From: Anaerolineaceae bacterium oral taxon 439 | GTDB lineage: Bacteria > Chloroflexota > Anaerolineae > Anaerolineales > Anaerolineaceae | Length of the DNA stretch: 64,000 bases | Assembly (NCBI GenBank): GCA_001717545.1 | Contig: CP017039.1 | Coordinates: 1,550,001 to 1,614,000, forward strand | Reading direction: 5' to 3' | Notes under the pieces: generated by a model | Database searches by the model: none | What the model was told of the DNA's origin: nothing | Seen by the model: the letters and a program-made list of their open reading frames with translations, nothing else | Translations under genes and position numbers: made by a program | In this document: one piece after another, positions 34,797 to 56,080 of the stretch | Layout of the letters: each line of letters starts with the position of its first letter | How positions within the stretch are numbered: the stretch's first letter is position 1

Positions 34797-36863
34797 TTAT
34801 TCCGGTTCTCCGGGCGATTCAAGAAACTGCGTATAGGTATTCAGAAATTCGTCTTCCGCGTGGACGGGGACGCCAAGTTTTCGCGCTTTTTCGAGTTTTG
34901 AGCCGGCTTTCTCGCCATAAATAACGAATGAGGTTTTCCGGCTGACCGAGTCGCCAGCTTTCCCGCCCAGGCGAACGATCTGTTCATGGATCGATTCGCG
35001 GGTAAAGCGTTTGAGCGTCCCGGTGACGACGACGGTTTGCCCGGCGAGCGGCAGGTTTTCCGGCGCGTTTTTATCAGCGCCTTCAGCGTCGCGCCTTTCG
35101 ACGGTCGGATCGATTCCGGCCTGGCGGAGTTTCCCGACGATTTCCAGGTTGCGAGGGGAACGGAACCATTCGATAATTGATTCAGCGAGCGTTTCGCCGA
35201 CGCCGTCGATCGCGGTGAGTTCCGAGTCCGCCGCTTCGCGAAGCGCGGCGATCGATCCGAAGCGGTTGGCTAACGACGCGGCGATGACTTCGCCGACGTT
35301 ACGGATCCCGAGCGCGTTGATCACGCGGGCGAGCGGACGGGATTTCGAGGCCTCGATCGCGGCGATCAGGTTGTCGGCTTTCTTTTCTCCGAAGCCCGGG
35401 AGGGTCAGGAGCTGGTCCCGGGTCAGGGCGTACAGGTCGGCGTAATCCGCGACCATTCCGCTTTCGCAGATTTGTTCAACGATCCGGATCCCCAGCCCTT
35501 CGATATCCATCGCGGTCCTGGACGCGAAGTATTCGACGACGCGAATAAGCTGCGCCGGGCAGCGGCTGTTGATACAGAAAAGGCCGATTTCGCCGGGGAA
35601 GCTTTCGACCGGCTCGCCGCAGGAAGGACATTTCGCCGGCGGAACGTAGGGAAGCTGGCTCCCATCGCGGCGTTCAGGGATCGACGCGACGACATACGGG
35701 ATCACGTCGCCGGCGCGCTTGATCAGGAGCTGGTCCCCGATTCGAATATCGCGGTCGCGAATGAAATCGAAGTTATGGAGCGAGGCCTGACGAATCGTGG
35801 CACCGCCGATTTCCGCAGGCTCCATCATGGCCGTTGGGGTCAGGATCCCGGTTCTCCCGACGGCGACGCTGATATAGAGGAGTCTTGTCATGGCTTCGCG
35901 CGCGGGGAATTTCAGCGCGATCGCACCGCGCGGATCTTTTCCGGCGAATCCGAGCGCGTCCGCGGTGACCAGGTCGTTGACCTTGATCACAATGCCATCG
36001 ATTTCGTAGCGGATCGTTTCGCGAATCTGCGTCCAGTTCGGAATATCGTTGAGAACGCCGTCAAGCGTCGGAAAGTATCTGGCTTCGTCGAATGTCGGAA
36101 AGCCAAGCTTTCGCAGGTAGTCGGTCCGTTCGGTTTGCTGCATGGGTATGGGAACGTCGTGCGAATCGTCCAGGACCTGGTAAATCAGGATTTTCAACGG
36201 ACGAGCGGCGGTCACCGCGGGGTTCAGCTGCCTGAGCGAGCCGGAAGCGGTATTCCGCGGGTTCAGGTACGGTTTTTCGCCGTTCCGGACGATTTCGTCG
36301 TTCAGCCGCTCGAAATCCTGATTTTCAATGTAGACTTCGCCGCGGACGACGATCGTTTCAGGGACGGGGACGGATTCGTTCGAAAGCGGGATCCGGAGGG
36401 GAACGGAGCGGATCGCGCGGATATTCGCCGTGATATCTTCGCCGACAAGCCCGTCCCCGCGCGTCGTCCCGCCCGTCAAGGCGCCGCTCCGATATGTCAG
36501 AACGACGGTCAGTCCGTCAATTTTGGGCTCCATGACGTAGCCAGCGCTGTCCGCGTCCGGGTCGATTTTTCGGATGCGCTCGGCCCAGGCGGCGACGTCC
36601 TGCGCCGAGAAGGCGTTGGCTAAGCTGAGGACGGGCTTCGGATGCGCGACCGCAGGGAACCGCCCGGAGGCGGGCGCGCCGACGCGCTGGGTCGGCGAAT
36701 CGGCCCGGATCCAGTCCGGATGCGCTGCTTCGATCTGCCGCAGTTCATTCAGAAGGCGGTCGAATTCGGCGTCGGTGATGATCGGCTGTTCAAGTACGTG
36801 GTAGCGATAGTTATGCTGATTCAGCGTCTGAATCCGTTGGATATAATCCAGTATGGAGAGCAT
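34797..36863 (-). CDS. ligA: NAD-dependent DNA ligase
   Basis: Seals nicks in replication and repair. 688 aa from MLSILDYIQRIQTLNQHNYR. Its domains are Ia, the adenylation domain with Lys114 in EPKIDGLTVVL, the OB-fold, the Cys4 zinc finger (CPSCGEPVESFPGEIGLFC then CPAQ), HhH repeats (LLTLPGFGEKKADNLIAAIE) and the C-terminal BRCT (TVVVTGTLKRFTRESIHEQI). The ATG at 36863 has GAGGGAG 8 nt upstream; the frame stays open further 5' without homology. Confidence 0.95.
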   Translation of the reverse strand: MLSILDYIQRIQTLNQHNYRYHVLEQPIITDAEFDRLLNELRQIEAAHPDWIRADSPTQRVGAPASGRFPAVAHPKPVLSLANAFSAQDVAAWAERIRKIDPDADSAGYVMEPKIDGLTVVLTYRSGALTGGTTRGDGLVGEDITANIRAIRSVPLRIPLSNESVPVPETIVVRGEVYIENQDFERLNDEIVRNGEKPYLNPRNTASGSLRQLNPAVTAARPLKILIYQVLDDSHDVPIPMQQTERTDYLRKLGFPTFDEARYFPTLDGVLNDIPNWTQIRETIRYEIDGIVIKVNDLVTADALGFAGKDPRGAIALKFPAREAMTRLLYISVAVGRTGILTPTAMMEPAEIGGATIRQASLHNFDFIRDRDIRIGDQLLIKRAGDVIPYVVASIPERRDGSQLPYVPPAKCPSCGEPVESFPGEIGLFCINSRCPAQLIRVVEYFASRTAMDIEGLGIRIVEQICESGMVADYADLYALTRDQLLTLPGFGEKKADNLIAAIEASKSRPLARVINALGIRNVGEVIAASLANRFGSIAALREAADSELTAIDGVGETLAESIIEWFRSPRNLEIVGKLRQAGIDPTVERRDAEGADKNAPENLPLAGQTVVVTGTLKRFTRESIHEQIVRLGGKAGDSVSRKTSFVIYGEKAGSKLEKARKLGVPVHAEDEFLNTYTQFLESPGEPE

Positions 36864-36956
36864 TCCAATTTCTCCCTCTCGCTTTTTATAAGGTATTATA
36901 TAATGGATCGGTTGATTCAACCGACTTGATCATGGGGTTTAAGGAGGATTTCAGCA

Positions 36957-44572: not shown

Positions 44573-45961
44573 ATGGCAACGCTACTCGTAAAAAATATTG
44601 ACACTTTGTACACAAACGACACCGATTTGGGCGATATGAAGGGCGGCGCGATTTTCGTCCGCGATAACGTCATCGAACAAATCGGGCTAACGTCTGAGCT
44701 GCCAGCGACCGCGGACCGCGTTATCGACGCGCGGGGAAAATTTATTTTACCGGGGTTCGTTAATACCCATCATCACTTTTTCCAGACGCTGACGCGGGCG
44801 GTCCCGGGCGCGCAGGACGAAGAGCTTTTCGATTGGCTGGTTCGGCTTTACCCGATTTTCAGCGAACTCGATTCGGAAGCGACCTACGTTTCGTCGACGA
44901 TCGCGATGGCGGAGCTGATTCTTTCCGGCTGTACGACGTCCAGCGATCATCAGTATCTTTGGCCCGGCGATTCAAAACTCGACGACCAGATTCGCGCTGC
45001 GTCCGAAATTGGGATGCGGTTCCATGCCGTTCGCGGGTCGATGACGCTGGGGCGAAGCCAGGGGGGCTTACCGCCGGATCACGTGATCCAGAGCGAAGAT
45101 GAAATTCTGGCCGACAGTCAGCGGCTGATCGAAACGTATCATGATCCGTCGCGCTACTCGATGTGCCGGCTGGTTCTCGCTCCATGCGCGCCGTTCAACG
45201 TCACGGAGCGGATCCTCGTCGAATCGGCGCGGATGGCGCGGTCGTATGACGGCGTCCGGCTGCATTCGCACGTCGCGGAAACGAAAGACGAGGAAACGTG
45301 GTGCGCCCGAACGCATCATATGCGCCCGGCGCGCTATATGGAGAAACTGGGCTGGGTTGGTGAAGACGTCTGGTGGGCGCATTGTATCTTCCTCCAGCCA
45401 GACGAGATCCAGCTGATGGCGGATACCGGTACCGGCGTGGCGCATTGTCCGTCGTCAAACATGCGCTTAGGCTCGGGCGTCGCGCCGATTCGCGAGATGC
45501 TGGACGCGGGCGTGCGCGTGTCGCTGGCGGTCGACGGTTCGGCTTCGAACGATTGCAGTCACATGATCAACGAAGGGCGGCAGGCGCTTCTTCTACAGCG
45601 GGTTGCGAAAGGGGCGAACGCGCTCAAGATTCGCGAGGTTTTCAGGATGGAGACGACGGGCGGAGCTTCGGTCCTGGGCCGCGACGATATCGGCGTGCTG
45701 CGTCCCGGGATGGCGGCGGACTTTATCGGCGTGCCGCTGAATACGATCGGCCTGGCCGGCGGCGCTGTGCATGACCCATTGGCGTCGCTGTTCCTTTGTT
45801 CCGTTCCAAAGGTCGATCTGTCGGTCATCAATGGGAAGATCGTTGTCGAGGGCGGAGAGCTGCGGACGATCGATCTGGAACGCTTTATCGCGCGGCATAA
45901 CGAAATCGCGCGCCGTAATGTCTCAAAGTACCCTGTTCCGGAGCGGTTCAAGCTGGTGTAA
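44573..45961 (+). CDS. Amidohydrolase, 8-oxoguanine deaminase-like
   Basis: 462 aa, a metal-dependent deaminase of the TrzN/AtzB/8-oxoguanine deaminase group. The metal site starts at NTHHHFFQTLTRAVPGAQDE (residues 64-83); VRLHSHVAETKDEE (about 232), VAHCPSSNMRLGSG and the catalytic Asp in AVDGSASND follow. The HHFFQT and SNMRLGSG signatures suit the 8-oxoguanine branch, but S-adenosylhomocysteine/guanine relatives are close. Its last 30 codons are duplicated at 46843, inside the downstream island. Confidence 0.85.
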   Translation: MATLLVKNIDTLYTNDTDLGDMKGGAIFVRDNVIEQIGLTSELPATADRVIDARGKFILPGFVNTHHHFFQTLTRAVPGAQDEELFDWLVRLYPIFSELDSEATYVSSTIAMAELILSGCTTSSDHQYLWPGDSKLDDQIRAASEIGMRFHAVRGSMTLGRSQGGLPPDHVIQSEDEILADSQRLIETYHDPSRYSMCRLVLAPCAPFNVTERILVESARMARSYDGVRLHSHVAETKDEETWCARTHHMRPARYMEKLGWVGEDVWWAHCIFLQPDEIQLMADTGTGVAHCPSSNMRLGSGVAPIREMLDAGVRVSLAVDGSASNDCSHMINEGRQALLLQRVAKGANALKIREVFRMETTGGASVLGRDDIGVLRPGMAADFIGVPLNTIGLAGGAVHDPLASLFLCSVPKVDLSVINGKIVVEGGELRTIDLERFIARHNEIARRNVSKYPVPERFKLV

Positions 45962-46036
45962 GCAGATGAATCCAGGAGACGGCGTCACGATGGGGCGCCG
46001 TCTTTTTTCATGGTTTTCCGTTGATTCGATCGCGTC
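45872..46036 (+). repeat. Repeat A: 3' end of the amidohydrolase gene, its terminator and a helicase-tail relic
   Basis: Matches 46843-46987 (copy A') at roughly 90% identity apart from gaps. It covers the last 30 codons of the amidohydrolase, its terminator (45978-46008) and about 28 further bases. Read on the minus strand those bases encode DAIEST then HEK, like DAIEAT/HEK at the end of the helicase. Beyond 46036 the copies diverge completely. Confidence 0.85.
45978..46008 (+). terminator. Terminator of the amidohydrolase gene
   Basis: GACGGCG / CGCCGTC stem followed by six T. A second copy at 46929-46957 (ending with five T) lies over the helicase stop codon. Confidence 0.85.
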
Positions 46037-46089
46037 CATGCGCGAGAAGCTTCCATCTCTGAAGAAAAGGAAATGCTGGTGATCATATT

Positions 46090-46710
46090 ATGATAAATGC
46101 AGTTTTATATATCCACGGGAAAGATGGGAATGCAGCGGAAGCGGATCATTATAAAGAATTGTTTCCATTCTGTGATGTATTTGGACTGGACTATAAAAAC
46201 GATACCCCATGGGCGGCGGGAGATGAAATAAGGGAAGCGGCCAGGTCGTTGAGCGTCAAATATGAAAATGTGATTTTGGTTGCAAACAGTATCGGCGCAT
46301 TCCTCTCGATGCATGCAGATATCGAGAAAGAGATAGCGCACGCTTATTTTATTTCTCCGATCGTTGATATGGAGAGCCTGATCATAGATATGATGCGCCG
46401 GGTGAAGGTTACTGAGTCGGAATTAAGGGAAAAGGGCGTCATAAAAAATGACTTTGGTGAAGAACTGTCATGGGAATATCTTTGCTATATTCGGAATAAT
46501 CCGATCCTTTGGAATGTTCCGACCGATATTCTGTATGGCAGCGAGGATGTTATGACATCTATTGATATCGTAACGACTTTTGCAGAAAAACATAACGGAA
46601 GGCTCACTGTTATGGATGGCGGCGGGCATTGGTTTCATACAGAGGCGCAAATGCGGTTTCTGGACGCCTGGATCAGAAAAACAATCGGATGTCGCGAGGA
46701 TTACCGCTAA
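46090..46710 (+). CDS. Alpha/beta hydrolase (cargo gene 1)
   Basis: 206 aa. The nucleophile elbow ANSIGA has Ser67, the Asp is in YGSEDVMTS, and the His is in GGGHWFHTEA near residue 180, so the catalytic triad is complete. The N-terminal AVLYIHGKDGNAAEADHYKE has the oxyanion HG. It is similar in size to small RBBP9/YdeN-like serine hydrolases. It is AT-richer than the flanking chromosome and lies alone between repeats A and B'. The substrate is unknown; a defence role is possible only by position. Confidence 0.7.
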   Translation: MINAVLYIHGKDGNAAEADHYKELFPFCDVFGLDYKNDTPWAAGDEIREAARSLSVKYENVILVANSIGAFLSMHADIEKEIAHAYFISPIVDMESLIIDMMRRVKVTESELREKGVIKNDFGEELSWEYLCYIRNNPILWNVPTDILYGSEDVMTSIDIVTTFAEKHNGRLTVMDGGGHWFHTEAQMRFLDAWIRKTIGCREDYR

Positions 46711-46723
46711 GTTAAGTGAAATA

Positions 46724-46787
46724 CGGCGTCCCGCTGGTTTCGCCCTGGAACCGTCGGCCGTTTCAGGGCGAAACCAGCGGGACGCCG
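46724..46787. repeat. 24-bp perfect inverted repeat (stem of B')
   Basis: CGGCGTCCCGCTGGTTTCGC with CCTG, mirrored at 46764-46787, around a 16-base loop. It may end the hydrolase transcript. Part of it (46741-46770) is the inverted version of the hairpin at 55993-56022. Confidence 0.9.
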
Positions 46788-46828
46788 AAAATCTATCGCG
46801 CAGCGATCGCCTGATTGACGACCTCGTT
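46770..46828 (-). repeat. Repeat B': duplicated 3' end of the NahK-like kinase gene
   Basis: 59 bases matching 56022-56080 with only two differences. It contains the last codons of the kinase (NEVV-QAIAAR-stop on the minus strand, one D changed to N). There is no kinase gene here. Confidence 0.9.
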
Positions 46829-46842
46829 GTGGGTGGATGAGT

Positions 46843-46987
46843 GATCTGGAAAGCTTCATCGCGCGCCGGAATGTCCAAAGTACCCTGTTCCAGAGCGGTT
46901 CAAGCTGGTGTAAGCGGATGAATCCAGGAGATGGCGTCACGATGAGGCGCCGTCTTTTTCATGGGATTCCGTTGCTTCGATCGCGTC
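46843..46987 (+). repeat. Repeat A': decayed copy of the amidohydrolase 3' end
   Basis: Second copy of 45872-46036. It lacks 18 bases between two ATCGCGCG repeats, one T in GTCTC and one T in the T-run. The amidohydrolase frame is therefore broken, which is expected for an unselected copy. Its 3' part carries the helicase stop. Confidence 0.88.
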
Positions 46988-49900
46988 GTCATATTTTTTC
47001 AGGAAATCAGCCGCGTATTCGCGGTTCAGGATATCGTGGATTTTCTGATTGTAATAGTTGCGCAGGCAGTTATAACAGGACGGCGAGCAGGTGCATTCCG
47101 TCGTGATTTTTATCGCCTTTTTGATGACCCGGCGGAAGACCGCGCCGTCACTCGTCGCGATCCTTCGGACGTGCCCGGCGCCGCCCGCTACGGCGTCGTA
47201 CAATACAATCGCGTAGATCAGATTTTTCCCTGAGTGGATTTTTTGCAGGCACGCTTTAATATCGTTCCGCTCGATATCCAGGGTTGCCGATAACGCCTCA
47301 AGCAGCGCGTACATCGCAGATACCATGACGCTATAGTCTCCCGCTTGCGGATGGTCGAAGATTATTCGAACGACGTCTGTCCTGAATACATGGATGAGCT
47401 TATTTTTAAAGAGTTTATTCTCACATTTTGTGTCCCAGGGCGTTGAATGTTTTTTCTCAAGCGTTTTCTTGTGCGAATTTGAATTTTCCTTCTTTTTCTG
47501 TTCGCTCAGACTTTCCGCGTAGCCGCAATGCGAACAGACATAAAAATCATCCGTGCAGACAACCATCAAAGAATCATTGACGGAGGTTTCCAGCTGAACC
47601 TGATTCCCATTTTTCAAAATAAATTTGAATTGTTCAATAACCTGGCGCTGCGTGTCGCCAATGTAGCAGTCTTCGCTGCGATAGGCTTTTTCCGGTTTAC
47701 GCATCGGGACGTCGGTTGGATTTGCGCTGGCGATGAAGCCCTTCCGCGGCTCAATCGCCTGCTGCCACTGCCCGCGGCTGATCGGTTCATGACATGCGAT
47801 GCAGAAGAGTTCTTCGTTCTCATTCGGTTGAATCGTTCGATAGTTCCAAGTCATACAGGCTGAATTTTTGCATTGCGCGATATAGGCGATTTCCCAATCC
47901 TGCCCCGTTTTCAGCGGCAATTTCCGGATGTATCGGCTCGTATACAGCTTCCCGTCGGCGACAACCTGCGAATCCGGCGCGTATTCCGAAACTGCCAGCT
48001 GCAAATCGCGAACCATCTGCAGCTTTTTATCAGACTGGGCGTTGGCGTTTTGGTGAAGTTCAACCGTATCGACCGGGAACCCATATTTGGGAAGGACGTT
48101 ATTCCGGACTAAGAATTCAATCAGTTCATTCCTGCCCCGTTGATCTTCTTTTCCCCGGCGGAACGATTTCAGTTTGTTTTCAATCGCCGCGGCTTTTTGG
48201 ACGTTTCCTTCTCTGAAAAAGCGGTCAACCTCCGCTTCGTAAAACTCGATCGTTTTTCGATAATCCTCAACCGCGATTTTCAGTACGCCGTCCGCGCCGA
48301 TCAGTCTCTCCGTCCAGGCGTAATCCGCGAGGCCCATTGGAGCGTGCATGTTCTCTGGTATGGACCGCAGTAAAACGCGCTTTAAATCTGCCGGCTTTCC
48401 CGCGAGATATTCGCGGAACTTTTCCCAGCCGTCGCCGTTGAGAAATACGTCTGCGTCATTCAGGTTATATACGTCCGGGTTCTTCGCGAAAAAGGCGCTG
48501 AGTGCGACCGCGAAGATATGGCGCAGGATAATTTTTTCGTTCCGGACGGCGAAAAGTGGGACGCCGATTTTCCCTGTGATCATGTTCGTCGGCTGGCTAT
48601 AAAACGTGTAATCATGCGAGCTAAGTTTCGCGTAGGTTAGCGAGAATGACGCCGTGTTGAGCCCCCGACCGGCGCGGCCGGCGCGCTGAACGTAATTCGC
48701 CGGGGACGGCGGCATATTCCGCAGGAAGACCGTTTCCAGATCGCCGACGTCGACGCCCATTTCGAACGTCGTCGAACAGCTCAGCGCGTTGATCTTTTTA
48801 TTGATGAACATCTCCTGATACTTTTGCTGCTGTTCGCGGCCCAGCTGCGCCGTATGCTCCTTGATATGCAGCGGCTTCATTTCTTCCGACTGATAGAGTT
48901 TTGCATAGTGATCTTCTGCGAGAATCGCTTCGCGTGAAATCGGCTGCAGCCGCCCGCCGCAGCGTACGTTCTGACAAAAGTTTTTGCAATTATGCATGGT
49001 AACTTTTCCGCATGTGTCGCAGCGGAAGAGCGGGGTCGCTTCGGTTCCGGCCTGAATCGTGAATCGATTGGTATGGATATAAAATTCCTGATTATCCGCC
49101 GAGGACAGTCCCTCCGTGCCGCAGAGTACCCCATTCCAATAATCCTTTAAAAGCTCGTTCGCAGCGGCTTCATTCTTGTCAAGCGCTTTCATGACCCGCT
49201 TCAGCCGGCTGTTGGAAATGAGCGAGCCGTTGTCTCGAATCGCGCAGGCCCATCCGCGCAGGTGCGTTTTCTTTGTATCCTGATCGCGGTCTTTCAATAT
49301 TTTGAAGCGTTTCGGGCGCGTCGAGTAAAAAATATAATCGCGATCGGAATCTGTCAATTCGCAGTCTCCTTCCAGCGCGCCATGATAAACGATATCCATG
49401 ACGAGAAGGTCGAATAACGCCTGCGTATCTTCAGCTTTTTGGCCAAGCTCCCTCGCAGCGTTTTGGATCATATCCTGACTGTTGCCTTTGTAATTGAACT
49501 TTATGAGTCCCAGGCTGACGAGACTGGTCGACCGGCGGGCGTTGACCATCTCGTTCAATACCGCGATCCAGGCGTGTTTCCGACTGATTGCAGTGAGGTT
49601 GCTCGAACCGTCGTCTCCGGGATCCGCGAACGTCCGGCATGAATCAAAATATGCAGTCAATTCTTCTACGAAGGCTTGAATTTCCCAGGGATGATTCGCC
49701 ATGTTCCGGCGATTTTTCTCGACGACATGCCAGATTCCTCGGCGACGCAGGAATTCTCCGTAGGACGCCTGCATGTAGGAAGCGAAAAAAGCAGCTTCTC
49801 CGCGGCTGTCTGAAAAGGTCAGGAATTGTTTTGCACGCTGAATTCTTTCGACCGGCTGGGTTCGGTTGGCGGCTCCGAATAAGCCGCTCTTCGCGGGGCG

Positions 49901-51811
49901 GGCTTCGTCGATTTCGCTTTTCAGCCTTTTTTCGCTTTCAGGAAGCTCTTCGAAAAGCGACGTTCCCAGGACAGACGTCGCCGCCTCCTGCCCCAGGTAG
50001 AACAATTTGAGGGAGCCCTGCTTACAGACTGGGCATTTGGGGGAATGATTCGTTCCGGACGAAGGCTTCGCTTTTCGGACCTGAATATATTGATTCTTTC
50101 CGCAGTCGCACGGTTTTCTCCCGCGCAGGCTTTCATCGCAGATCGATCCGCAGGCCGCGCAGATCAGATAATCTTCTATTTCGATACTGTCGCTTTGAGA
50201 TTTGCCGTCGGCTTCGTCTTCTTCGTCGTACTCGTCCAGGTCCGAATCTTTCGGATCGCGAATGAGATAAAAGCTGATATCCTGATCAAACATGCCTGAC
50301 CCAAATTCAATCTTATCCTGGAAACTTTTCCCGACGATCGCGACGCGTCCGCAATCATCGCAAACCGCACATTCGAAAACTTTCCTGTCTTCTCCTTGCA
50401 GCTTGATCGTACTTTTCCGCGTCAACATCAGCTTTTTTGATGAATCCAAGGTAATGTACATGCCTTCCGGCGCTTTGGCGAACAGATGATACCTGGCTTT
50501 GATCAGAGGCGTCATGTTTTTGACAGCCTGCGCTGCGATATGGATAATATGAATAACGTCTTGATCGGTTATTTCGTGATCTTTTTGAAGCGCCTTCGTG
50601 ATCTCCGGAATCGTCATCGGCTCCGTCAGGATTTTTCGCAACTCCCGATAAAGCGTCGCCCGCGTGCAGAGATCATACAAATATTCTGCGTCCGCCTGCC
50701 CTTCCGGAATCGCTAACCCGTAATCTGCGACAATGTTGTTCAGCGGCTTATTCGGATCGGACAGATCCGCGAAAAGCTTCGCCGGGATATCGAGCGGAGC
50801 GTCGGAGAAATCCGGCGGAATTCGTTCGGAGCGAATAATATCGGAGGACCGAAACTTTGCGCCGCAAAGCGTTTCTGCAAACTTGACGATCTCCGGGTTT
50901 ACGTCTTTCTTTCCGAGGGTCGCGCTCGTCAGGATATGCAAAACGTTGTCCGGATCGCTGATCCGGGCCTTGAGACGTTTCAGGAGCATCGCAGTTTCCA
51001 TTCCGGTTGCGCCGCGGTAGATATGCGCCTCGTCCAGAACGAGGAATCGCAGCTTTGCGCCAGAAAAGACCAGATCGTCTTTTGGCCGCAGCATCATATA
51101 TTCAAGCATTGCGTAATTCGTGATCAGGATATGCGGCGGGGTCGCGCGCATCTGATCGCGCGAGATGACTTCGTTTTTCAACGGCGTCATCGGCTTTCCA
51201 GTTGCGTCTTTAAATATTTTTCCGTACCCGATTCGCCCTTGCTCTTCTTTTTCTTTCGTGCTGCTGTTGTAGACGCCGAACGTAATTTTCGGATAGTATC
51301 TGAATAGTTTGCGAAGCCTTTTCATCTGATCATTCGCCAGCGCGTTCATCGGATAGATCAGGATCGCGCGGACGCCCGAATCAAGTTCCCCATCTTCGAT
51401 CTCATGCAGCAGGTGATGGATAATCGGAATCAGGAAGCACTCCGTTTTCCCGGAGCCGGTCCCGGTCGTGACGATCAGGTTCTTTCCTTGATTGGCTTTT
51501 CGAATCGCCTGCTCCTGGTGCAGATATAAGCCGCGGTTAAGCTGGATTTCCTTTTCGCCGTCCGGAAGATCGCCTTCTAATTCGTTGAATAAATCGGATA
51601 TGACGCCTTCTTTGATCAGCGCGGCGAGGCTGGCGCCCTTTTTAAAGGAATCGCTGATCTCCAGGAAAGGACCTTTTGTGACTGCGCCTTCTTTCTGGAG
51701 TGCCTTTCGGAATTGTTCCGAATAATCCGGGTCGGCGATATTAAAGGATGTCGTAATATAACTGATAAATTCGTCTTTAATATTTTGTGAGGCTTGGATC
51801 GGGTCAAACAT
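46937..51811 (-). CDS. DEAH helicase with DUF1998-like C-terminus (DruE-like)
   Basis: 1624 aa. Helicase core: GTGSGKT (117-123), DEAH (260-263), SATLG (296-300) and motif VI in YVQRAGRAGRGLNTASF. Cys-rich patches at about 480-600 (CAVCDDCG, CAACGSICDES, CPVCKQG), about 935-955 (CDTCGKVTMHNCKNFCQNVRCGG) and about 1310-1430 are probably zinc-binding. The C-terminal part (about 1520-1600) is DUF1998-like: VLYDAVAGGAGHVRRI and CTCSPSCYNCLRNYYNQ. Such giant helicase-DUF1998 proteins define DruE of Druantia defence; DISARM-type helicases are alternatives. It follows the upstream gene after 3 nt. The tail lies in repeat A'. Confidence 0.8.
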   Translation of the reverse strand: MFDPIQASQNIKDEFISYITTSFNIADPDYSEQFRKALQKEGAVTKGPFLEISDSFKKGASLAALIKEGVISDLFNELEGDLPDGEKEIQLNRGLYLHQEQAIRKANQGKNLIVTTGTGSGKTECFLIPIIHHLLHEIEDGELDSGVRAILIYPMNALANDQMKRLRKLFRYYPKITFGVYNSSTKEKEEQGRIGYGKIFKDATGKPMTPLKNEVISRDQMRATPPHILITNYAMLEYMMLRPKDDLVFSGAKLRFLVLDEAHIYRGATGMETAMLLKRLKARISDPDNVLHILTSATLGKKDVNPEIVKFAETLCGAKFRSSDIIRSERIPPDFSDAPLDIPAKLFADLSDPNKPLNNIVADYGLAIPEGQADAEYLYDLCTRATLYRELRKILTEPMTIPEITKALQKDHEITDQDVIHIIHIAAQAVKNMTPLIKARYHLFAKAPEGMYITLDSSKKLMLTRKSTIKLQGEDRKVFECAVCDDCGRVAIVGKSFQDKIEFGSGMFDQDISFYLIRDPKDSDLDEYDEEDEADGKSQSDSIEIEDYLICAACGSICDESLRGRKPCDCGKNQYIQVRKAKPSSGTNHSPKCPVCKQGSLKLFYLGQEAATSVLGTSLFEELPESEKRLKSEIDEARPAKSGLFGAANRTQPVERIQRAKQFLTFSDSRGEAAFFASYMQASYGEFLRRRGIWHVVEKNRRNMANHPWEIQAFVEELTAYFDSCRTFADPGDDGSSNLTAISRKHAWIAVLNEMVNARRSTSLVSLGLIKFNYKGNSQDMIQNAARELGQKAEDTQALFDLLVMDIVYHGALEGDCELTDSDRDYIFYSTRPKRFKILKDRDQDTKKTHLRGWACAIRDNGSLISNSRLKRVMKALDKNEAAANELLKDYWNGVLCGTEGLSSADNQEFYIHTNRFTIQAGTEATPLFRCDTCGKVTMHNCKNFCQNVRCGGRLQPISREAILAEDHYAKLYQSEEMKPLHIKEHTAQLGREQQQKYQEMFINKKINALSCSTTFEMGVDVGDLETVFLRNMPPSPANYVQRAGRAGRGLNTASFSLTYAKLSSHDYTFYSQPTNMITGKIGVPLFAVRNEKIILRHIFAVALSAFFAKNPDVYNLNDADVFLNGDGWEKFREYLAGKPADLKRVLLRSIPENMHAPMGLADYAWTERLIGADGVLKIAVEDYRKTIEFYEAEVDRFFREGNVQKAAAIENKLKSFRRGKEDQRGRNELIEFLVRNNVLPKYGFPVDTVELHQNANAQSDKKLQMVRDLQLAVSEYAPDSQVVADGKLYTSRYIRKLPLKTGQDWEIAYIAQCKNSACMTWNYRTIQPNENEELFCIACHEPISRGQWQQAIEPRKGFIASANPTDVPMRKPEKAYRSEDCYIGDTQRQVIEQFKFILKNGNQVQLETSVNDSLMVVCTDDFYVCSHCGYAESLSEQKKKENSNSHKKTLEKKHSTPWDTKCENKLFKNKLIHVFRTDVVRIIFDHPQAGDYSVMVSAMYALLEALSATLDIERNDIKACLQKIHSGKNLIYAIVLYDAVAGGAGHVRRIATSDGAVFRRVIKKAIKITTECTCSPSCYNCLRNYYNQKIHDILNREYAADFLKKYDDAIEATESHEKDGASS

Positions 51812-51814
51812 CAG

Positions 51815-54800
51815 CTATGGCCTTTCAGTCGTGTAAAAAAATAAATCAACAGAATCGTAGCGATTTTTATTTTTTTGATTTGGCTCTCGATCTGTCAGAC
51901 TATACTCGGTTTTCGTCATCTCATCAAATATTTTCCGATAGTAAAAGCCGTCTCCATGCGAATTGGTAATACTCATCGTCCTTTCCCCGATATAGATCAC
52001 AAGGACCGGGTTAACCTGATAGCGCGTAATCCCGCGTTCATCGGTAAACGCTTCGGATGAGAAATTCTTCCGATTATTTCCATCTTTATAGCGAAAGAGG
52101 ATTCCGCTGTATACAGGGCAGTTGCCTTCGGACGTGGGCTGAATTCCCTCGAATTTAATCTGATCGATATAACATGGATGGACCTCGATCGTTTTTTCAC
52201 CGTTGGTAATGGACGGAATCCGGATCCGGCGGTTCTGGAAACGCAGCAGATTCTTATCGCCAATAATGCATTCGCCCTGCGCGAGTTCAATTTCGGTTTG
52301 ACTGAAAAGGCTCTTCGATCGGATCGCGATTTTATACTGATATTCGCCTCCCGGTACGTTCTCCGGAAGCAGGAGGCTGTCCGTGGATTCGTCTAAATCG
52401 AACGTCATTGGCGCGTTCGATCCGAGTTTCAGTGTCAATATAAACTTTTGATTCGGACTTCCGATAAAAGCGCCGCCCAGATCCCAGAATAAGACCCCGT
52501 TCTCTTCCCAAAGCTTCGGCCTGCGAAGGAACCCTTCTTTGAAGAAGACGGAGCCAAGCGGGTATGTCGCTGCAGTTTGATTTCTTTCGATCTTTAAATC
52601 GAGATGGACCCTGGCGTTCGGCAGTGTTATCGAATGGAGCTTGTTCCCGATCAGCATCGAGCCATTTTTATCAAACTGGGTTGGCTCTCCGTCAATCAGC
52701 AATGACGCTGAAGCGCCCTTTGGAGCCGTAATCTGTAATCGACTGTCCTGCGCAATATCCCGATAATACCAGGCGGAAGCCGGCGGGTTCAGCCATTTAC
52801 CGGTGGACTCGGAAAGCGTGATTTTGGGAATCGCGATCTGAACGTCGCCGTTCCGATATGGGAACGATATGAATTCGTCACCCGCGGAAAAATCGATCGA
52901 TTCCGACAGCTCATCCAACTGAATTTCCACTTTCGCGTCTCGATAATCTTCGCTGGAATAGTAAAACTCGCGCGAAAATTTGCAGCTTGCCTGGTCGATC
53001 AGGAGATAATCCCGCTTGAAAAGGAGCTTTTCTTCGCCGAGGTCCAGGATGCGAATTCTGCAGACGTCTTTTCCGTTATCCAGCGGCAAGGCGTAGAGCG
53101 TTTTTTCCTCGTTGCAGTCCAACGCTGATAAATCGATTCGTTCCTCATCTTTCCGGATAACGTATCGGGTTGAAACCTCGGGCCGGCTTAGAACAAGATG
53201 GCAGGCGCTTTTTCGATCCGCGAATTCGAATTCTTCCTCGTCCTCGATATAAGTCGGAAGCGATTCCGATTCTTGAGGCGAAAGAATCCGGAACTCAGTT
53301 TCGGTTTCGCCGCGGTCGTAATAAGCGATTTTTGAATCGATCCTGACGATAAATCCGGGCTCTAACTCAACGAAATACCCGTTCGCCGCTGGGACTTTCA
53401 GCGGCTGGATCGGCGATTGCTCTCCGCGTTCGACCTGAACCCGTTTGTCAGACGGGAGGATCAGCGTGTAATCTCCCGGCGGAAGGATCGAACCGGTCAG
53501 TTCGTTTTTCCCGGAAAACAGGAACCGGGTCCGATAGAGTCTTTCCTCAGAATCGTAAATCGCTTCCTCCTCGCTGGCCAGCCGCAGGCGAAGCTGACCT
53601 GGAAATTCATTCTTTATCAGCGAATGAAGATCGATCGTTTTACTTTTCAGCGTCTTGCCCAGTTCGTTCCCGTACCATGCCATTGAGCAAGTTGAAATAA
53701 GCCTGTCCGCGCTGTAAACTTCGAGCGTCAGGTTTGGCTCGATCGTTCGCTGAAGACGGATTTCAGGCAATCCAATTTGAAGTTCGTCTTCATTTTTCAA
53801 ATAAAATCTGGCTCGGATTTTTGAATAGTCCCAGACGATTTCCCGCCGCTCGCTCGCTCGATCTTTTTCGGATTTTCTTGAATCGGATATTTCCGTGAGT
53901 TTTCTCTCGAACCAATCTTCGCAGAGCTTTTCCTCATAATGTTTTATTTCTTCAATGTTATTGTTGATGAGCGAGTCGATTTTCTGGAGCATTCGCACAA
54001 CGAGGCTGCGGGTAAATTTCGGCCGAAGTAAAATCAGTTTCCGGATCCCTTCTCGGAACGAATAACTTCGGGAACTGATCGAGATGTTGAGATTTTCCGA
54101 TTGAACGCCCTGTTCGTCGCTGAATCGCTGGCTCAGAACCTGGAGCATGTCCCCGATCAGCGGTTCGTCCGGATCGATCGTCCACCCCAGGTTTTCTTTA
54201 TAGAAGTCAAAAAGAAAATCAAAAAAGGCCATCCAGGATTCACGGGGCGAGAAAGCGTGCATCGTAACGGTACTGCGGAAGGACCGTTTTCTTTCGTTTT
54301 CGATAAAAAACCTGTGATTTCGATCGAGCGTGCCTTCCAAGGCGCCTTTCAGGATTTCTTCAACAATTTTATCTTTATCAAGGTACCCGAATTGCTTAGC
54401 CGCATATTCCCAGAATTTTGGCTGGACATCCGGATCCCAGTTTTTTGTGTAGTGAGTTAAGGCGAGCGTAAGAATTGCCTGATCCCTGCGTAAGAGCCGT
54501 TTGATTGAACCCGATAATCTTTTCTTGAGAATCTTTTCGGCTTCCTGAAGGATGGTTTGGGTTTCTTCTTCTGTCAGGATCGCGCTTCCGATCAGAGGAT
54601 TTTCCGCGAACGCGCGGGCGATAAAATCTCCCTCGCTCGTCCGAATTTCCATATCCGATTCCATTCCATCGTCCTGGGGGACAGGCCGCTGCTGCGTCCG
54701 TACAAAGCCTAATTTTTCAATATATTTTTCTAAGCTGATCCCTTTTCCGTATACAAAAGAATTCAGATTTCGATAAGTGGAAGAATCCGCCGGGAGATAA

Positions 54801-55846
54801 ACGACGTTATCCTGAACGATATATTTTTGCAGCTCCGCGATATGTTGTGCTGTTGTTTCCTGCGATAGATTGAATAGAGAGTGCGTTCGATACGTTTTCC
54901 CGCCGGGATAGAGCGCTATTCTATCTGCTTCCGGATTGATCGTCCGGATATATTCGCGATACTTCGAAATCGCATGTGTGACTTTCCCTTTTAATCTATT
55001 GTCGTGTGCGTTGAAATGATCTGACTGTTTGTACGCGTCGATGATCTGATCCAGTTCAGCAATGGATTCGCATTGGTAGAAATCGTAAGTCGGGACAGGA
55101 AAACTAAATTCCGCGGGTAAATTTCTTAGAATCGTCGCGGTCCATCTTGCGCTAACCTCGGAACAGTTCTGTTGCTCATGGAGCCAGGCAGTAAAGCGTT
55201 CTTTAAGGTCTGTCGAGGCGGCTGGTTCATAGTGAGGAGCCTGTTGAGTGAATGAGGCAGCTGGATGATTCGTTTCAGTTGTCTTCGCGATCGGATTTTC
55301 TTCTTCTCCATCATTTCTGGCTTTGATTTCTGCTGGGGTTGAAGCGAGTTTGCTGACGGAGGGTAGCGCGTCTTTCAGCGGGTTCATGGCATTGGGACCA
55401 GGCGGAGGCAGCTCCTGCGCGGAAGCTTCGGGCTCGATCGCCGGAACGGTCGGAGTTATTTCTTTCGCAGGAGGGATTTCTACGGGTTGAGAGACGGGGT
55501 CTGACGCCTCGATCGGTTCCGCTGGTTGGATCGATTCGCCCGGCTGCAACGTGACTGGCTCTGGCTCGTTTGCGGATGAGGCTTTGGTCGGTTGATTTTC
55601 TATGTCTGACCCTGTTTCATTTGAGCATTGAATATACTTCAATTCAGATTGTGATTCAATTTGTACGCCGGAAACCCTCGGCAGGCTGCTCTTTTTTTTA
55701 CGGCGGGGCTTCGTTTTAGCGCGATTTGCGCCAGAAAGCGTCTTCCAAAGGTTTCTCAGGCGATGAAGAAGATTCCCGGAATTCTTGCTTTTTGTGGATT
55801 TATTTTTTTGCTTTAACTTGCGAAATAGCAACTTGAAAAATCTCAT
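51815..55846 (-). CDS. Large partner protein of the helicase (DruH-like candidate)
   Basis: 1343 aa. N-terminal 1-55 is very basic (RFFKLLFRKLKQKNKSTKSK); 60-215 is a Pro/Glu/Ala-rich linker. At about 215-300 is a helical domain (ERFTAWLHEQQNCSEVSARW, SIAELDQIIDAYK, ISKYREYIR) like the core-binding-type domains fronting several restriction enzymes. The middle (about 330-720) is helical; from about 720 it is beta-rich with Ig-like repeats. No nuclease or ATPase motif is seen. The pairing with a DUF1998 helicase and order upstream of it match druH-druE of Druantia type III, but the sequence link is unproven. It could be a new family. Confidence 0.6.
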   Translation of the reverse strand: MRFFKLLFRKLKQKNKSTKSKNSGNLLHRLRNLWKTLSGANRAKTKPRRKKKSSLPRVSGVQIESQSELKYIQCSNETGSDIENQPTKASSANEPEPVTLQPGESIQPAEPIEASDPVSQPVEIPPAKEITPTVPAIEPEASAQELPPPGPNAMNPLKDALPSVSKLASTPAEIKARNDGEEENPIAKTTETNHPAASFTQQAPHYEPAASTDLKERFTAWLHEQQNCSEVSARWTATILRNLPAEFSFPVPTYDFYQCESIAELDQIIDAYKQSDHFNAHDNRLKGKVTHAISKYREYIRTINPEADRIALYPGGKTYRTHSLFNLSQETTAQHIAELQKYIVQDNVVYLPADSSTYRNLNSFVYGKGISLEKYIEKLGFVRTQQRPVPQDDGMESDMEIRTSEGDFIARAFAENPLIGSAILTEEETQTILQEAEKILKKRLSGSIKRLLRRDQAILTLALTHYTKNWDPDVQPKFWEYAAKQFGYLDKDKIVEEILKGALEGTLDRNHRFFIENERKRSFRSTVTMHAFSPRESWMAFFDFLFDFYKENLGWTIDPDEPLIGDMLQVLSQRFSDEQGVQSENLNISISSRSYSFREGIRKLILLRPKFTRSLVVRMLQKIDSLINNNIEEIKHYEEKLCEDWFERKLTEISDSRKSEKDRASERREIVWDYSKIRARFYLKNEDELQIGLPEIRLQRTIEPNLTLEVYSADRLISTCSMAWYGNELGKTLKSKTIDLHSLIKNEFPGQLRLRLASEEEAIYDSEERLYRTRFLFSGKNELTGSILPPGDYTLILPSDKRVQVERGEQSPIQPLKVPAANGYFVELEPGFIVRIDSKIAYYDRGETETEFRILSPQESESLPTYIEDEEEFEFADRKSACHLVLSRPEVSTRYVIRKDEERIDLSALDCNEEKTLYALPLDNGKDVCRIRILDLGEEKLLFKRDYLLIDQASCKFSREFYYSSEDYRDAKVEIQLDELSESIDFSAGDEFISFPYRNGDVQIAIPKITLSESTGKWLNPPASAWYYRDIAQDSRLQITAPKGASASLLIDGEPTQFDKNGSMLIGNKLHSITLPNARVHLDLKIERNQTAATYPLGSVFFKEGFLRRPKLWEENGVLFWDLGGAFIGSPNQKFILTLKLGSNAPMTFDLDESTDSLLLPENVPGGEYQYKIAIRSKSLFSQTEIELAQGECIIGDKNLLRFQNRRIRIPSITNGEKTIEVHPCYIDQIKFEGIQPTSEGNCPVYSGILFRYKDGNNRKNFSSEAFTDERGITRYQVNPVLVIYIGERTMSITNSHGDGFYYRKIFDEMTKTEYSLTDREPNQKNKNRYDSVDLFFYTTERP

Positions 55847-55903: not shown

Positions 55904-55933
55904 ATTATATAATGTATTTAGAACCTTTTGCAA
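55904..55933 (-). promoter_or_regulatory. Promoter of the two-gene helicase operon
   Basis: On the minus strand TTGCAA, 18-bp spacer, TATAAT, giving a leader of about 50 nt before the 55846 start. It lies in an AT-rich stretch between the operon and repeat B. Confidence 0.7.
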
Positions 55934-55992
55934 GTTTCTTTCTTTCAGTCCACAAAGCCAACGCGGATCGGGTCGCCTGCGATTTAATAAAT

Positions 55993-56022
55993 CGCCCTGA
56001 AACGGCAGACCGTTCCAGGGCG
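55993..56022. terminator. Hairpin downstream of the NahK-like gene
   Basis: CGCCCTG(...)CAGGGCG stem, with AT-rich sequence next to it on the minus strand. The same hairpin is present inverted at 46741-46770. Confidence 0.65.
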
Positions 56023-56080
56023 AAACCAGCGGGAGGCCGAAAATCTATCGCGCAGCGATCGCCTGATCGACGACCTCGTT
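56022..56080 (-). repeat. Repeat B: original 3' end of the NahK-like gene
   Basis: The intact copy of the 59-bp repeat B', part of the functional kinase gene. It marks the right boundary of the accessory region. Confidence 0.9.

What the first reader, a model, noticed from the sequence alone, without database searches (positions are those of the whole stretch)
46937..55846. Two-gene giant helicase system resembling Druantia type III in a Chloroflexota-like genome
A 1343-aa protein and a 1624-aa DEAH helicase with DUF1998-like C-terminus are 3 nt apart, have their own promoter, are AT-richer than the flanks and sit in an accessory hotspot. Two-gene composition, order and sizes match druH-druE of Druantia type III (established knowledge). 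That the partner is DruH is inference; a new DUF1998 partner family is equally possible.
Basis: partly seen in the sequence, partly recalled or inferred. Interest (0 to 1): 0.82.

Follow-up and report, generated by a model that had tools for sequence, protein, structure and literature searches.

The report
Druantia-like helicase pair with unrecognised partner
A rumen-type Chloroflexota genome carries a mobile pair of giant genes, a Druantia-family DNA helicase and a fast-evolving partner that present defence-gene models do not recognise, which looks like a diverged relative of a known two-gene anti-phage system.

Summary
The two genes are real: partner 51815-55846 (-, 1343 aa), 3 nt, helicase 46937-51811 (-, 1624 aa). 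The helicase is DruE-family nearly end to end (PADLOC DruE 584 bits, best other model 86), with intact motifs, and stops after DUF1998, leaving no room for a nuclease domain. The partner matches no Pfam, NCBIfam or PADLOC model, DruH included. The complete pair stands in 8 of 10 loci found (window included): rumen Chloroflexota, Anaerotignum, Ruminococcus-family genomes and one Ruminococcus phage; the other two lie at contig ends. The helicase is better conserved than the partner in 28 of 28 pairings. Profile comparison links the partner's helical module to partners in other Chloroflexota, which are clearly DruH-related; direct comparison with DruH fails. Relatives have parts the window copy lacks: RNA polymerase alpha-CTD domains on the partner (5 of 9 scanned) and a NERD-nuclease/helicase gene (3 of 8). 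In the sister family 5 of 10 partners end in a sigma-70 factor, a sixth holds part of one. Direct repeats of 89 and 132 nt suggest arrival by recombination. Verdict: a Druantia III-like system of a new partner lineage, not canonical Druantia III. Defence function is inferred.

The parts
51815..55846 (-). Partner protein, 1343 aa: low-complexity basic/Pro-rich N-terminus (about 1-200), helical region (about 205-665, shared core from about 330), then mostly beta strands (about 680-1340). First gene of the pair.
   Evidence: ORF; no Pfam, PADLOC or NCBIfam hit; homologues; helical-then-beta layout from a low-confidence AlphaFold2 model, pLDDT 45
46937..51811 (-). DruE-family (YprA-type) SF2 helicase, 1624 aa: Walker A GTGSGKT at 117, DEAH at 260, SAT at 296, QRAGRAGR at 1042, seven CxxC pairs, DUF1998/MZB 1500-1583; ends 41 residues after MZB.
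   Evidence: ORF; Pfam; PADLOC DruE1 1.9e-175 and DruE3 3.2e-174; motifs
55904..55933 (-). Promoter-like site TTGCAA-18-TATAAT upstream of the partner gene, inside the cassette
   Evidence: consensus match only
55992..56080 (.). Repeat R1b, 89 nt: holds the 3' end of the kinase gene (ends 56045) and its hairpin; right edge of the cassette
   Evidence: two copies in the 2.95 Mb genome; terminator-like hairpin 56023-55992
46740..46828 (.). Repeat R1a, 89 nt, 91% identical to R1b: a remnant of the kinase gene's 3' end left of the cassette
46858..46987 (.). Repeat R2b, 92.4% identical over 132 alignment columns to 45905-46036; its right end encodes the last 16 codons and stop of the helicase; left edge of the cassette
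   Evidence: coordinates
45905..46036 (.). Repeat R2a: 3' end of the amidohydrolase (8-oxoguanine deaminase-like) gene and sequence downstream of it
   Evidence: gene identity

Best explanation
A horizontally acquired two-gene anti-phage system of the Druantia type III-like kind. Shown: a DruE-family helicase with no room for a nuclease domain, paired with a fast-evolving partner that has a helical module remotely related to the N-terminal part of DruH-related proteins, followed by a long region predicted (with low confidence) to be beta strands. Inferred mechanism: the partner is the sensor/regulator, whose Ig-like chain binds a phage structural or other late protein; on binding it activates or loads the helicase; the helicase, acting on 3'-ssDNA-bearing phage DNA (replication forks, packaging intermediates), unwinds or blocks it so that phage DNA cannot circularise or replicate. 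Because this helicase has no nuclease of its own, cutting (if any) comes from the partner, from a host nuclease, or in some relatives from the NERD-nuclease/helicase gene that follows. In the window copy that third gene is absent and the last 16 helicase residues are flank sequence; the conserved helicase core is whole.
For: DruE models 584/580 bits over nearly full length; the best other PADLOC models are SngC 86, DpdJ 81, BrxH 74, with DrmA 59; solved helicase 9tu7 240 bits against 65 for YprA 6znp (I take 9tu7 to be DruE because 9tud is named DruH). Adjacent partner-helicase order in 8 of 10 loci, the other two at contig ends. Helicase more conserved than partner in 28 of 28 pairings of 8 loci, not independent of each other, e.g. 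58% against 28%, the pattern reported for DruE/DruH (PMC13192584 section 13). Partner core vs family-B partners hhalign E 4.7e-5 over 686 columns, N-module score 57.9 against at most 19.4 in 10 shuffles; family B vs DruH E 6e-9, score 89.6 against at most 25.2 in 20 shuffles. The low-confidence partner model matches chains of Ig/FN3 domains (57 PDB matches at E<=0.001). A DruE without canonical nuclease domain works in M. smegmatis (1667 aa, PMC13316683 Discussion), and 'Druantia III-like' helicases most often lack a nuclease (PMC12458937 section 8). Helicase motifs intact. Mobile setting: repeats, recombinase-domain genes near L007/L012 and L106, phage L015.
Against: No phage test exists. No match of the partner to DruH directly. 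Adding DruH rows to family B weakens the match (core E 0.0034, N-module 5e-4), the beta region alone shows no signal to family B or DruH, and with fewer rows the full comparison to family B was only E 0.0029, probability 11%; these E-values are for one comparison and I made many. Both models are poor (pLDDT 45 and 53); the Ig-like matches have TM-scores of about 0.1 on the query, and DruH 9tud is not among the 50 listed of 1186. No defence island in 10 window proteins tested. The window copy lacks the C-terminal tail of its five nearest relatives, the alpha-CTD domains and the third gene, and could be a weakened copy.
Confidence: 0.68

Rival explanations
1. Canonical Druantia type III: the partner is simply a diverged DruH (YjiT family) and the helicase a DruE3 that lost its PLD domains.
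For: Same two-gene order; DruE3 model 3.2e-174, nearly tied with DruE1; remote chain partner - family B - DruH.
Against: No DruH model at E<=1; NF038336 not hit; direct profile comparison E 0.042 over 38 columns or nothing; the quick helicase tree keeps the three proteobacterial DruE3 apart from the A/B/C group with SH-aLRT 97, though it warns of long branches.
Confidence: 0.12
2. A separate helicase system: the partner is not homologous to DruH; the shared helical module is a widespread domain, and the two systems only share the helicase.
For: No direct signal to DruH; the beta region gives no signal to family B or DruH; alpha-CTD domains and the NERD gene in relatives are not part of Druantia III in the sections of the papers read.
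Against: The alignment to family B is colinear over 686 columns, and family B is DruH-related.
Confidence: 0.25
3. A decayed or non-functional copy: the module was truncated on arrival (helicase tail replaced, third gene and N-terminal alpha-CTD missing). This may hold together with the main explanation.
For: The last 16 helicase codons lie in repeat R2b; the five nearest relatives have 1729-1804 aa helicases and three of eight loci a NERD gene; the window partner's N-terminus is low-complexity.
Against: Both ORFs are open over 2967 codons; helicase motifs kept; L106 and the phage copy (1593, 1558 aa), nine family-B helicases (1633-1678 aa) and the M. smegmatis DruE (1667 aa) are about as short; the promoter-like site is inside the cassette.
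Confidence: 0.15
4. A housekeeping YprA/MrfA-type repair helicase with an accessory protein.
For: DUF1998/MZB and the YprA-type core.
Against: DruE models far outscore YprA-like ones; partner in the own genome and 1 of 60 relatives, and only the own genome of 400 in the phylum draw; spread across phyla and into a phage.
Confidence: 0.03

Closest known systems
Druantia type III (DruH-DruE), E. coli and M. smegmatis
   Same: Two adjacent giant genes, partner first; DruE-family helicase with DUF1998; partner evolves faster than helicase; partner beta-rich with Ig-like matches, both from a low-confidence model.
   Different: Partner matches no DruH/YjiT model; no PLD nuclease domains on the helicase (present in E. 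coli DruE per PMC13192584); helicase 25% identical to E. coli DruE.
Druantia type III-like / III-B branch (PMC12458937)
   Same: DruE-type helicase most often without any nuclease domain; ours falls outside the three DruE3 rows of our tree.
   Different: Membership not tested: its reference sequence was not fetched; the sections read do not describe its partner gene.
Family B found here in Chloroflexota (partner 1137-1357 aa in 9 of 10, helicase 1633-1678 aa in 9 of 10)
   Same: Same order and similar sizes; remote homology of partners; NERD gene at the helicase's 3' end in 2 of 10 loci.
   Different: 5 of 10 partners end in a sigma-70 factor (a sixth holds part of one) instead of N-terminal alpha-CTD domains; helicases form a separate clade.
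TALON (PMC12458937)
   Same: Chloroflexota; a NERD nuclease gene beside a YprA-type helicase (in relatives of our pair, not in the window).
   Different: No TPR-CSD or TBP gene in the pair; no room for the C-terminal RNase H domain; TALON helicases are described as ARMADA-like. No TALON reference sequence was compared.
ARMADA type I
   Same: YprA-type defence helicase.
   Different: No BrxHII-like helicase or PglX-like methylase gene beside it; three helicases with ARMADA-like neighbours fall outside the group.

Membership tests
Druantia (any type) | DruE-family YprA-type SF2 helicase with DUF1998 | tested here: met
   PADLOC DruE1 1.9e-175, best stretch 208-1605 of 1624; MZB 1500-1583
Druantia type III | DruH (YjiT/STY4851 family) partner | tested here: not met
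   No PADLOC DruH model at E<=1, no NF038336 at 0.01; positive control E. coli DruH hits 11 DruH models and NF038336; BLASTP best E 0.46 and hhalign vs DruH negative
Druantia type III | Partner remotely homologous to DruH | tested here: inconclusive
   Only through family B: partner-B E 4.7e-5, B-DruH 6e-9; weaker when B and DruH are pooled; structure models too poor
Druantia type III | Two-gene operon, druH-position gene before druE | tested here: met
   3 nt gap, same strand; order kept in 8 of 10 loci, other two at contig ends
Druantia type III | Two C-terminal PLD domains on DruE | tested here: not met
   Protein ends 41 residues after MZB; my HKD regex is uninformative since it also missed E. 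coli DruE
Druantia type III | Protection against phages | not testable with these tools
   needs an experiment
Druantia type III-like / III-B (PMC12458937) | Helicase falls in that branch of the YprA tree | not tested
   its reference sequences were not fetched; 31-row tree without them
DISARM | DrmA helicase plus separate DrmB with DUF1998 | tested here: not met
   DUF1998 is fused; DrmA 59 bits against DruE 584
ARMADA | BrxHII-like and PglX-like genes beside the YprA homologue | tested here: not met
   neighbours are a kinase-like gene, a hydrolase-like gene (below Pfam cut-off) and an amidohydrolase
TALON | NERD nuclease, TPR-CSD and TBP genes; C-terminal RNase H fold | tested here: not met
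   none of these among the genes next to the window pair; NERD gene only in 3 relatives
Housekeeping YprA/MrfA | closest to YprA/MrfA | tested here: not met
   YprA 6znp 65 bits vs 9tu7 240 bits

The most novel reading that the evidence does not exclude
DruE-type helicases of this group are controlled by partners that carry pieces of the transcription machine: RNA polymerase alpha-CTD domains in one family, a sigma-70 factor in its sister family. These modules tether the helicase system to RNA polymerase or promoters, or let the partner notice when a phage takes over or rewires host transcription, so that transcription takeover is the trigger for attack on phage DNA.
Probability: 0.12. Interest if true: 0.82.

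Novelty: new variant of a known kind. Interest (0 to 1): 0.52.

Why it matters
It shows that the DruE helicase works with partner lineages that the defence-gene models used here miss, so Druantia-like systems are probably under-counted. A DruE without nuclease domain and an optional NERD nuclease gene separates the helicase step from the cutting step and makes that division testable. The sigma-70 and alpha-CTD fusions in partners give a concrete, testable link between a defence helicase and transcription. A phage carrying the same pair suggests use in competition between phages.

Tried and rejected
DruH membership by HMM, BLASTP and direct profile comparison: negative. Housekeeping YprA, DISARM, ARMADA and TALON: rejected for the window pair.

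Viral contigs: three scans, no relative. Plasmids: no partner match. Phages: the partner alone gave one weak hit (MT836674.1, E 2e-4, 6% of the query), not followed; the helicase led to PV036439.1.

Two AlphaFold2 jobs gave poor models (pLDDT 45.3 and 53.3); the fold search with the 308-residue module had no match at E<=0.001 and is treated as no evidence.

Empty-site test: kinase and amidohydrolase genes were sought in the 14 genus genomes. Apart from the window's own genome, the only one with both best hits on one contig is G005, where they lie about 96 kb apart; the best kinase hit there is 53% identical, so no near relative was at hand, and the insertion history rests on the repeats alone. 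A leftover helicase tail downstream of the gene was looked for by eye only; none seen. The HKD regex failed its own positive control and was not used. The first hhalign run was made with a global option by mistake and was replaced.

Sigma-70 fusions were first counted as 6 of 10; L051 holds only part of one and does not end in it, so the count is 5 plus 1 partial.
Full report
Observation. Both genes are present as described: partner 51815-55846 and helicase 46937-51811, minus strand, 1343 and 1624 aa, 3 nt apart. GC is 0.498 over the pair and 0.561 and 0.533 in the 8 kb on either side. The window is part of a 2.95 Mb single-contig genome in which the helicase query has one full match and two short matches in another helicase gene. 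The genus includes G012, whose two contigs carrying the partner appear in the named collection as MAG RUG11948, 'uncultured Chloroflexi bacterium'; that RUG names are rumen genomes is recalled.

The helicase. Pfam finds DEAD, Helicase_C and the MrfA Zn-binding domain MZB/DUF1998 at 1500-1583. PADLOC gives DruE1 584 bits and DruE3 580; the best other models are SngC 86, DpdJ 81 and BrxH 74, with DrmA 59. Solved relatives are 9tu7 (240 bits) and 9wae (153), ahead of YprA 6znp (65). Walker A, DEAH, SAT and motif VI and seven CxxC pairs are intact. The protein ends 41 residues after MZB, so there is no room for a nuclease domain. PMC12458937 (abstract, sections 5, 7, 8, figure legends and passages seen) says that helicases of a 'Druantia Type III-like' branch most often have none; PMC13316683 (abstract, outline and Discussion seen) reports a 1667-aa DruE without a canonical nuclease domain in an M. 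smegmatis system that protects.

The partner. No Pfam or NCBIfam family at 0.01 and no PADLOC family at E<=1; phmmer against solved structures gave one hit at 0.03, to residues 29-155 of its low-complexity N-terminus. The E. coli DruH, taken as control, hits 11 DruH models and NF038336. So it is not a recognised DruH.

Relatives. The partner was found in the own genome and in 1 of 60 relatives, which has two loci; in 1 of 400 Chloroflexota genomes, that one being the window's own (G012 was not reported in that draw); in 1 of 58 genomes of the family of Anaerotignum and 4 of 398 of the family of Ruminococcus RUG12166, each count including the starting genome. A pattern-limited scan of 84,980 species' contigs gave 5 loci, two of them those of G012. 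A 916-aa homologue lies in Ruminococcus phage NatCom_28274 (hhalign 95.9%, E 5e-9). Ten members in all: window, L010, L011, L012, L013, L014, L103, L105, L106, L015. In eight the DruE-like helicase follows at once. L014 stops inside the partner at a contig end. In L103 the sequence after the partner begins by eye like the helicase but the frame breaks after about 20 residues, within the last 525 nt of the contig, with no profile hit: a broken copy or an assembly fault. The pair is thus a real unit, spread across phyla, once in a phage, and twice near recombinase-domain genes (L007/L012; L106).

Rates. In all 28 pairings of the eight complete loci the helicase is more conserved than the partner, e.g. 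window-Anaerotignum 58% against 28%; the pairings are not independent. PMC13192584 (abstract, sections 9, 13, 16 and passages seen) reports the same for DruE/DruH and reads it as a sensor under phage-driven selection (section 13).

Extra parts in relatives. Five of nine members scanned (L010, L011, L012 as its copy L007, L013, L105) have RNA polymerase alpha-CTD domains at the partner's N-terminus; the window, L106, L103 and the phage version showed none, and L014 was not scanned. Such domains are small helix-hairpin-helix folds (recalled) and two of these partners also match BREX PglW there, so a plain DNA- or protein-binding role is possible. Three of the eight complete loci (L010, L011, L012) have a third gene, a NERD-nuclease/UvrD-type helicase of 574-609 aa, directly after the helicase.

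Sister families. Of 400 Chloroflexota genomes 63 have a DruE/YprA-type helicase match at 1e-30. I took the regions of 16 of the top 17 by score, leaving out G321. In 10 of the 16 the upstream gene belongs to one family (B); L061's helicase is split in two ORFs. Five of the ten B partners end in a sigma-70 factor (L052, L053, L055, L056, L058), and L051 holds part of one inside a longer ORF; Pfam regions 1.2, 2, 3 and 4 were shown for L053 only, the others by likeness to it. Two of ten B loci also have the NERD gene (L056, 14 nt after the helicase; L055, a 346-aa piece overlapping its end). No PADLOC DruH model matched the four B partners tested, yet an alignment of nine of the ten (L051 left out) matches a DruH alignment at E 6e-9, score 89.6 against at most 25.2 in 20 shuffles.

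Is the partner DruH-like? Profile comparison with shuffled-column controls: partner core vs B, E 4.7e-5, probability 68%, 686 columns, score 55.5 against at most 18.9 in 10 shuffles; N-module alone E 3.2e-6, probability 88%, 57.9 against 19.4; partner vs DruH directly 0.042 over 38 columns or nothing; with B and DruH pooled 0.0034 (core) and 5e-4 (N-module); the beta region gives no signal. With fewer rows the core comparison gave only 0.0029. E-values are for one comparison each and several were made. My reading: a very distant member of the DruH superfamily, linked by its helical module and by layout. This is not proved. AlphaFold2 with six rows gave helices to about residue 665 and then mostly strands, at pLDDT 45; its fold matches are mainly chains of Ig/FN3 domains, with the T5 tail tip among them, at TM-scores near 0.1, and DruH 9tud is not in the 50 listed of 1186.

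Tree. With 31 helicases (quick method, SH-aLRT only) family A is one clade (99), B one (99), C one (100), the three proteobacterial DruE3 one (100), and the ARMADA-context helicases lie outside. The program warns of long branches for the phage row, one ARMADA row and the DruE3-ARMADA join. Group and ARMADA labels rest on neighbouring genes (for L059, on size), not on a published reference.

How it got there. R1, 89 nt (46740-46828 and 55992-56080, 91% identical), holds the 3' end of the kinase gene; R2, 132 columns (45905-46036 and 46858-46987, 92.4%), holds the 3' end of the amidohydrolase gene. R1 was found nowhere else in the genome; R2 was not sought outside the window. The order is amidohydrolase-R2-hydrolase-R1-R2-[helicase-partner]-R1-kinase. 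The simplest reading is two alternative cargoes of one site stacked side by side, with the 8-9% difference between repeats pointing to a donor strain or sister species; this is inference, and no empty site could be found. The last 16 helicase residues and the stop lie in R2b, so the end of the gene is flank sequence; the DruE1 match ends at 1605, so the core is whole.

Mechanism. From PMC13192584 DruE loads on 3'-tailed DNA and DruH is the likely sensor, a case its authors call indirect; from PMC13316683 phage DNA circularisation and replication are blocked and a minor tail protein triggers it. The two papers differ on whether DruH and DruE bind each other stably. By homology the window helicase should do the same DNA step; sensing by the window partner is an analogy. 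The source of any DNA cutting is open.

Print status. Searches for YprA/Druantia/DISARM/DUF1998 (20 of 43 listed), Druantia/sigma factor/alpha/DruH (15 of 247 listed) and YprA/DruE/NERD/sigma70/antiphage (2 of 2) showed, in titles and starts of abstracts, no paper on alpha-CTD or sigma-70 fusions to a DruE partner; in PMC12458937 'sigma' occurs only as a supplier's name and 'RNA polymerase' not at all in the main text. Its supplementary tables were not read, so this is weak evidence of absence.

Noticed in passing
L053:9280-13320, also L052, L055, L056, L058; part in L051: Partners of DruE-like helicases in other Chloroflexota end in a sigma-70 factor (5 of 10 family-B partners, a sixth with part of one).
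   Followed up: partly
L015:7242-14665 (Ruminococcus phage PV036439.1): A phage carries the same partner-helicase pair close to its endolysin gene; both genes are annotated hypothetical. It may serve against competing phages.
   Followed up: partly
L010:13252-14976, L011:17584-19308, L012:13274-15103, L056:3050-4705: A NERD-nuclease/UvrD-type helicase gene follows DruE-like helicases of two different families.
   Followed up: partly
L060, L062, L063, L064: A third Chloroflexota group: helicases of about 1510-1570 aa behind partners of 409-816 aa with conserved C-terminal Cys/His finger-like motifs.
   Followed up: no
window 45905-46987 and 55992-56080: Two interleaved direct repeats suggest a hotspot in which alternative cargoes were stacked in tandem.
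   Followed up: partly
L103:1-525: Behind the partner gene the helicase start is seen by eye, then the frame breaks; a broken pair or an assembly fault at the contig end.
   Followed up: partly
window 34797-36920 (-): 707-aa protein whose residues 608-697 match PADLOC candidate PDC-S48 (2e-10).
   Followed up: no
MT836674.1:2576-2836: Weak partner-like match (E 2e-4, 83 residues) in an unannotated 9 kb phage record.
   Followed up: no
L013:3887-5230: A 447-aa protein without a Pfam family is encoded just upstream of, and overlapping, the partner gene in one of the two G012 loci.
   Followed up: no
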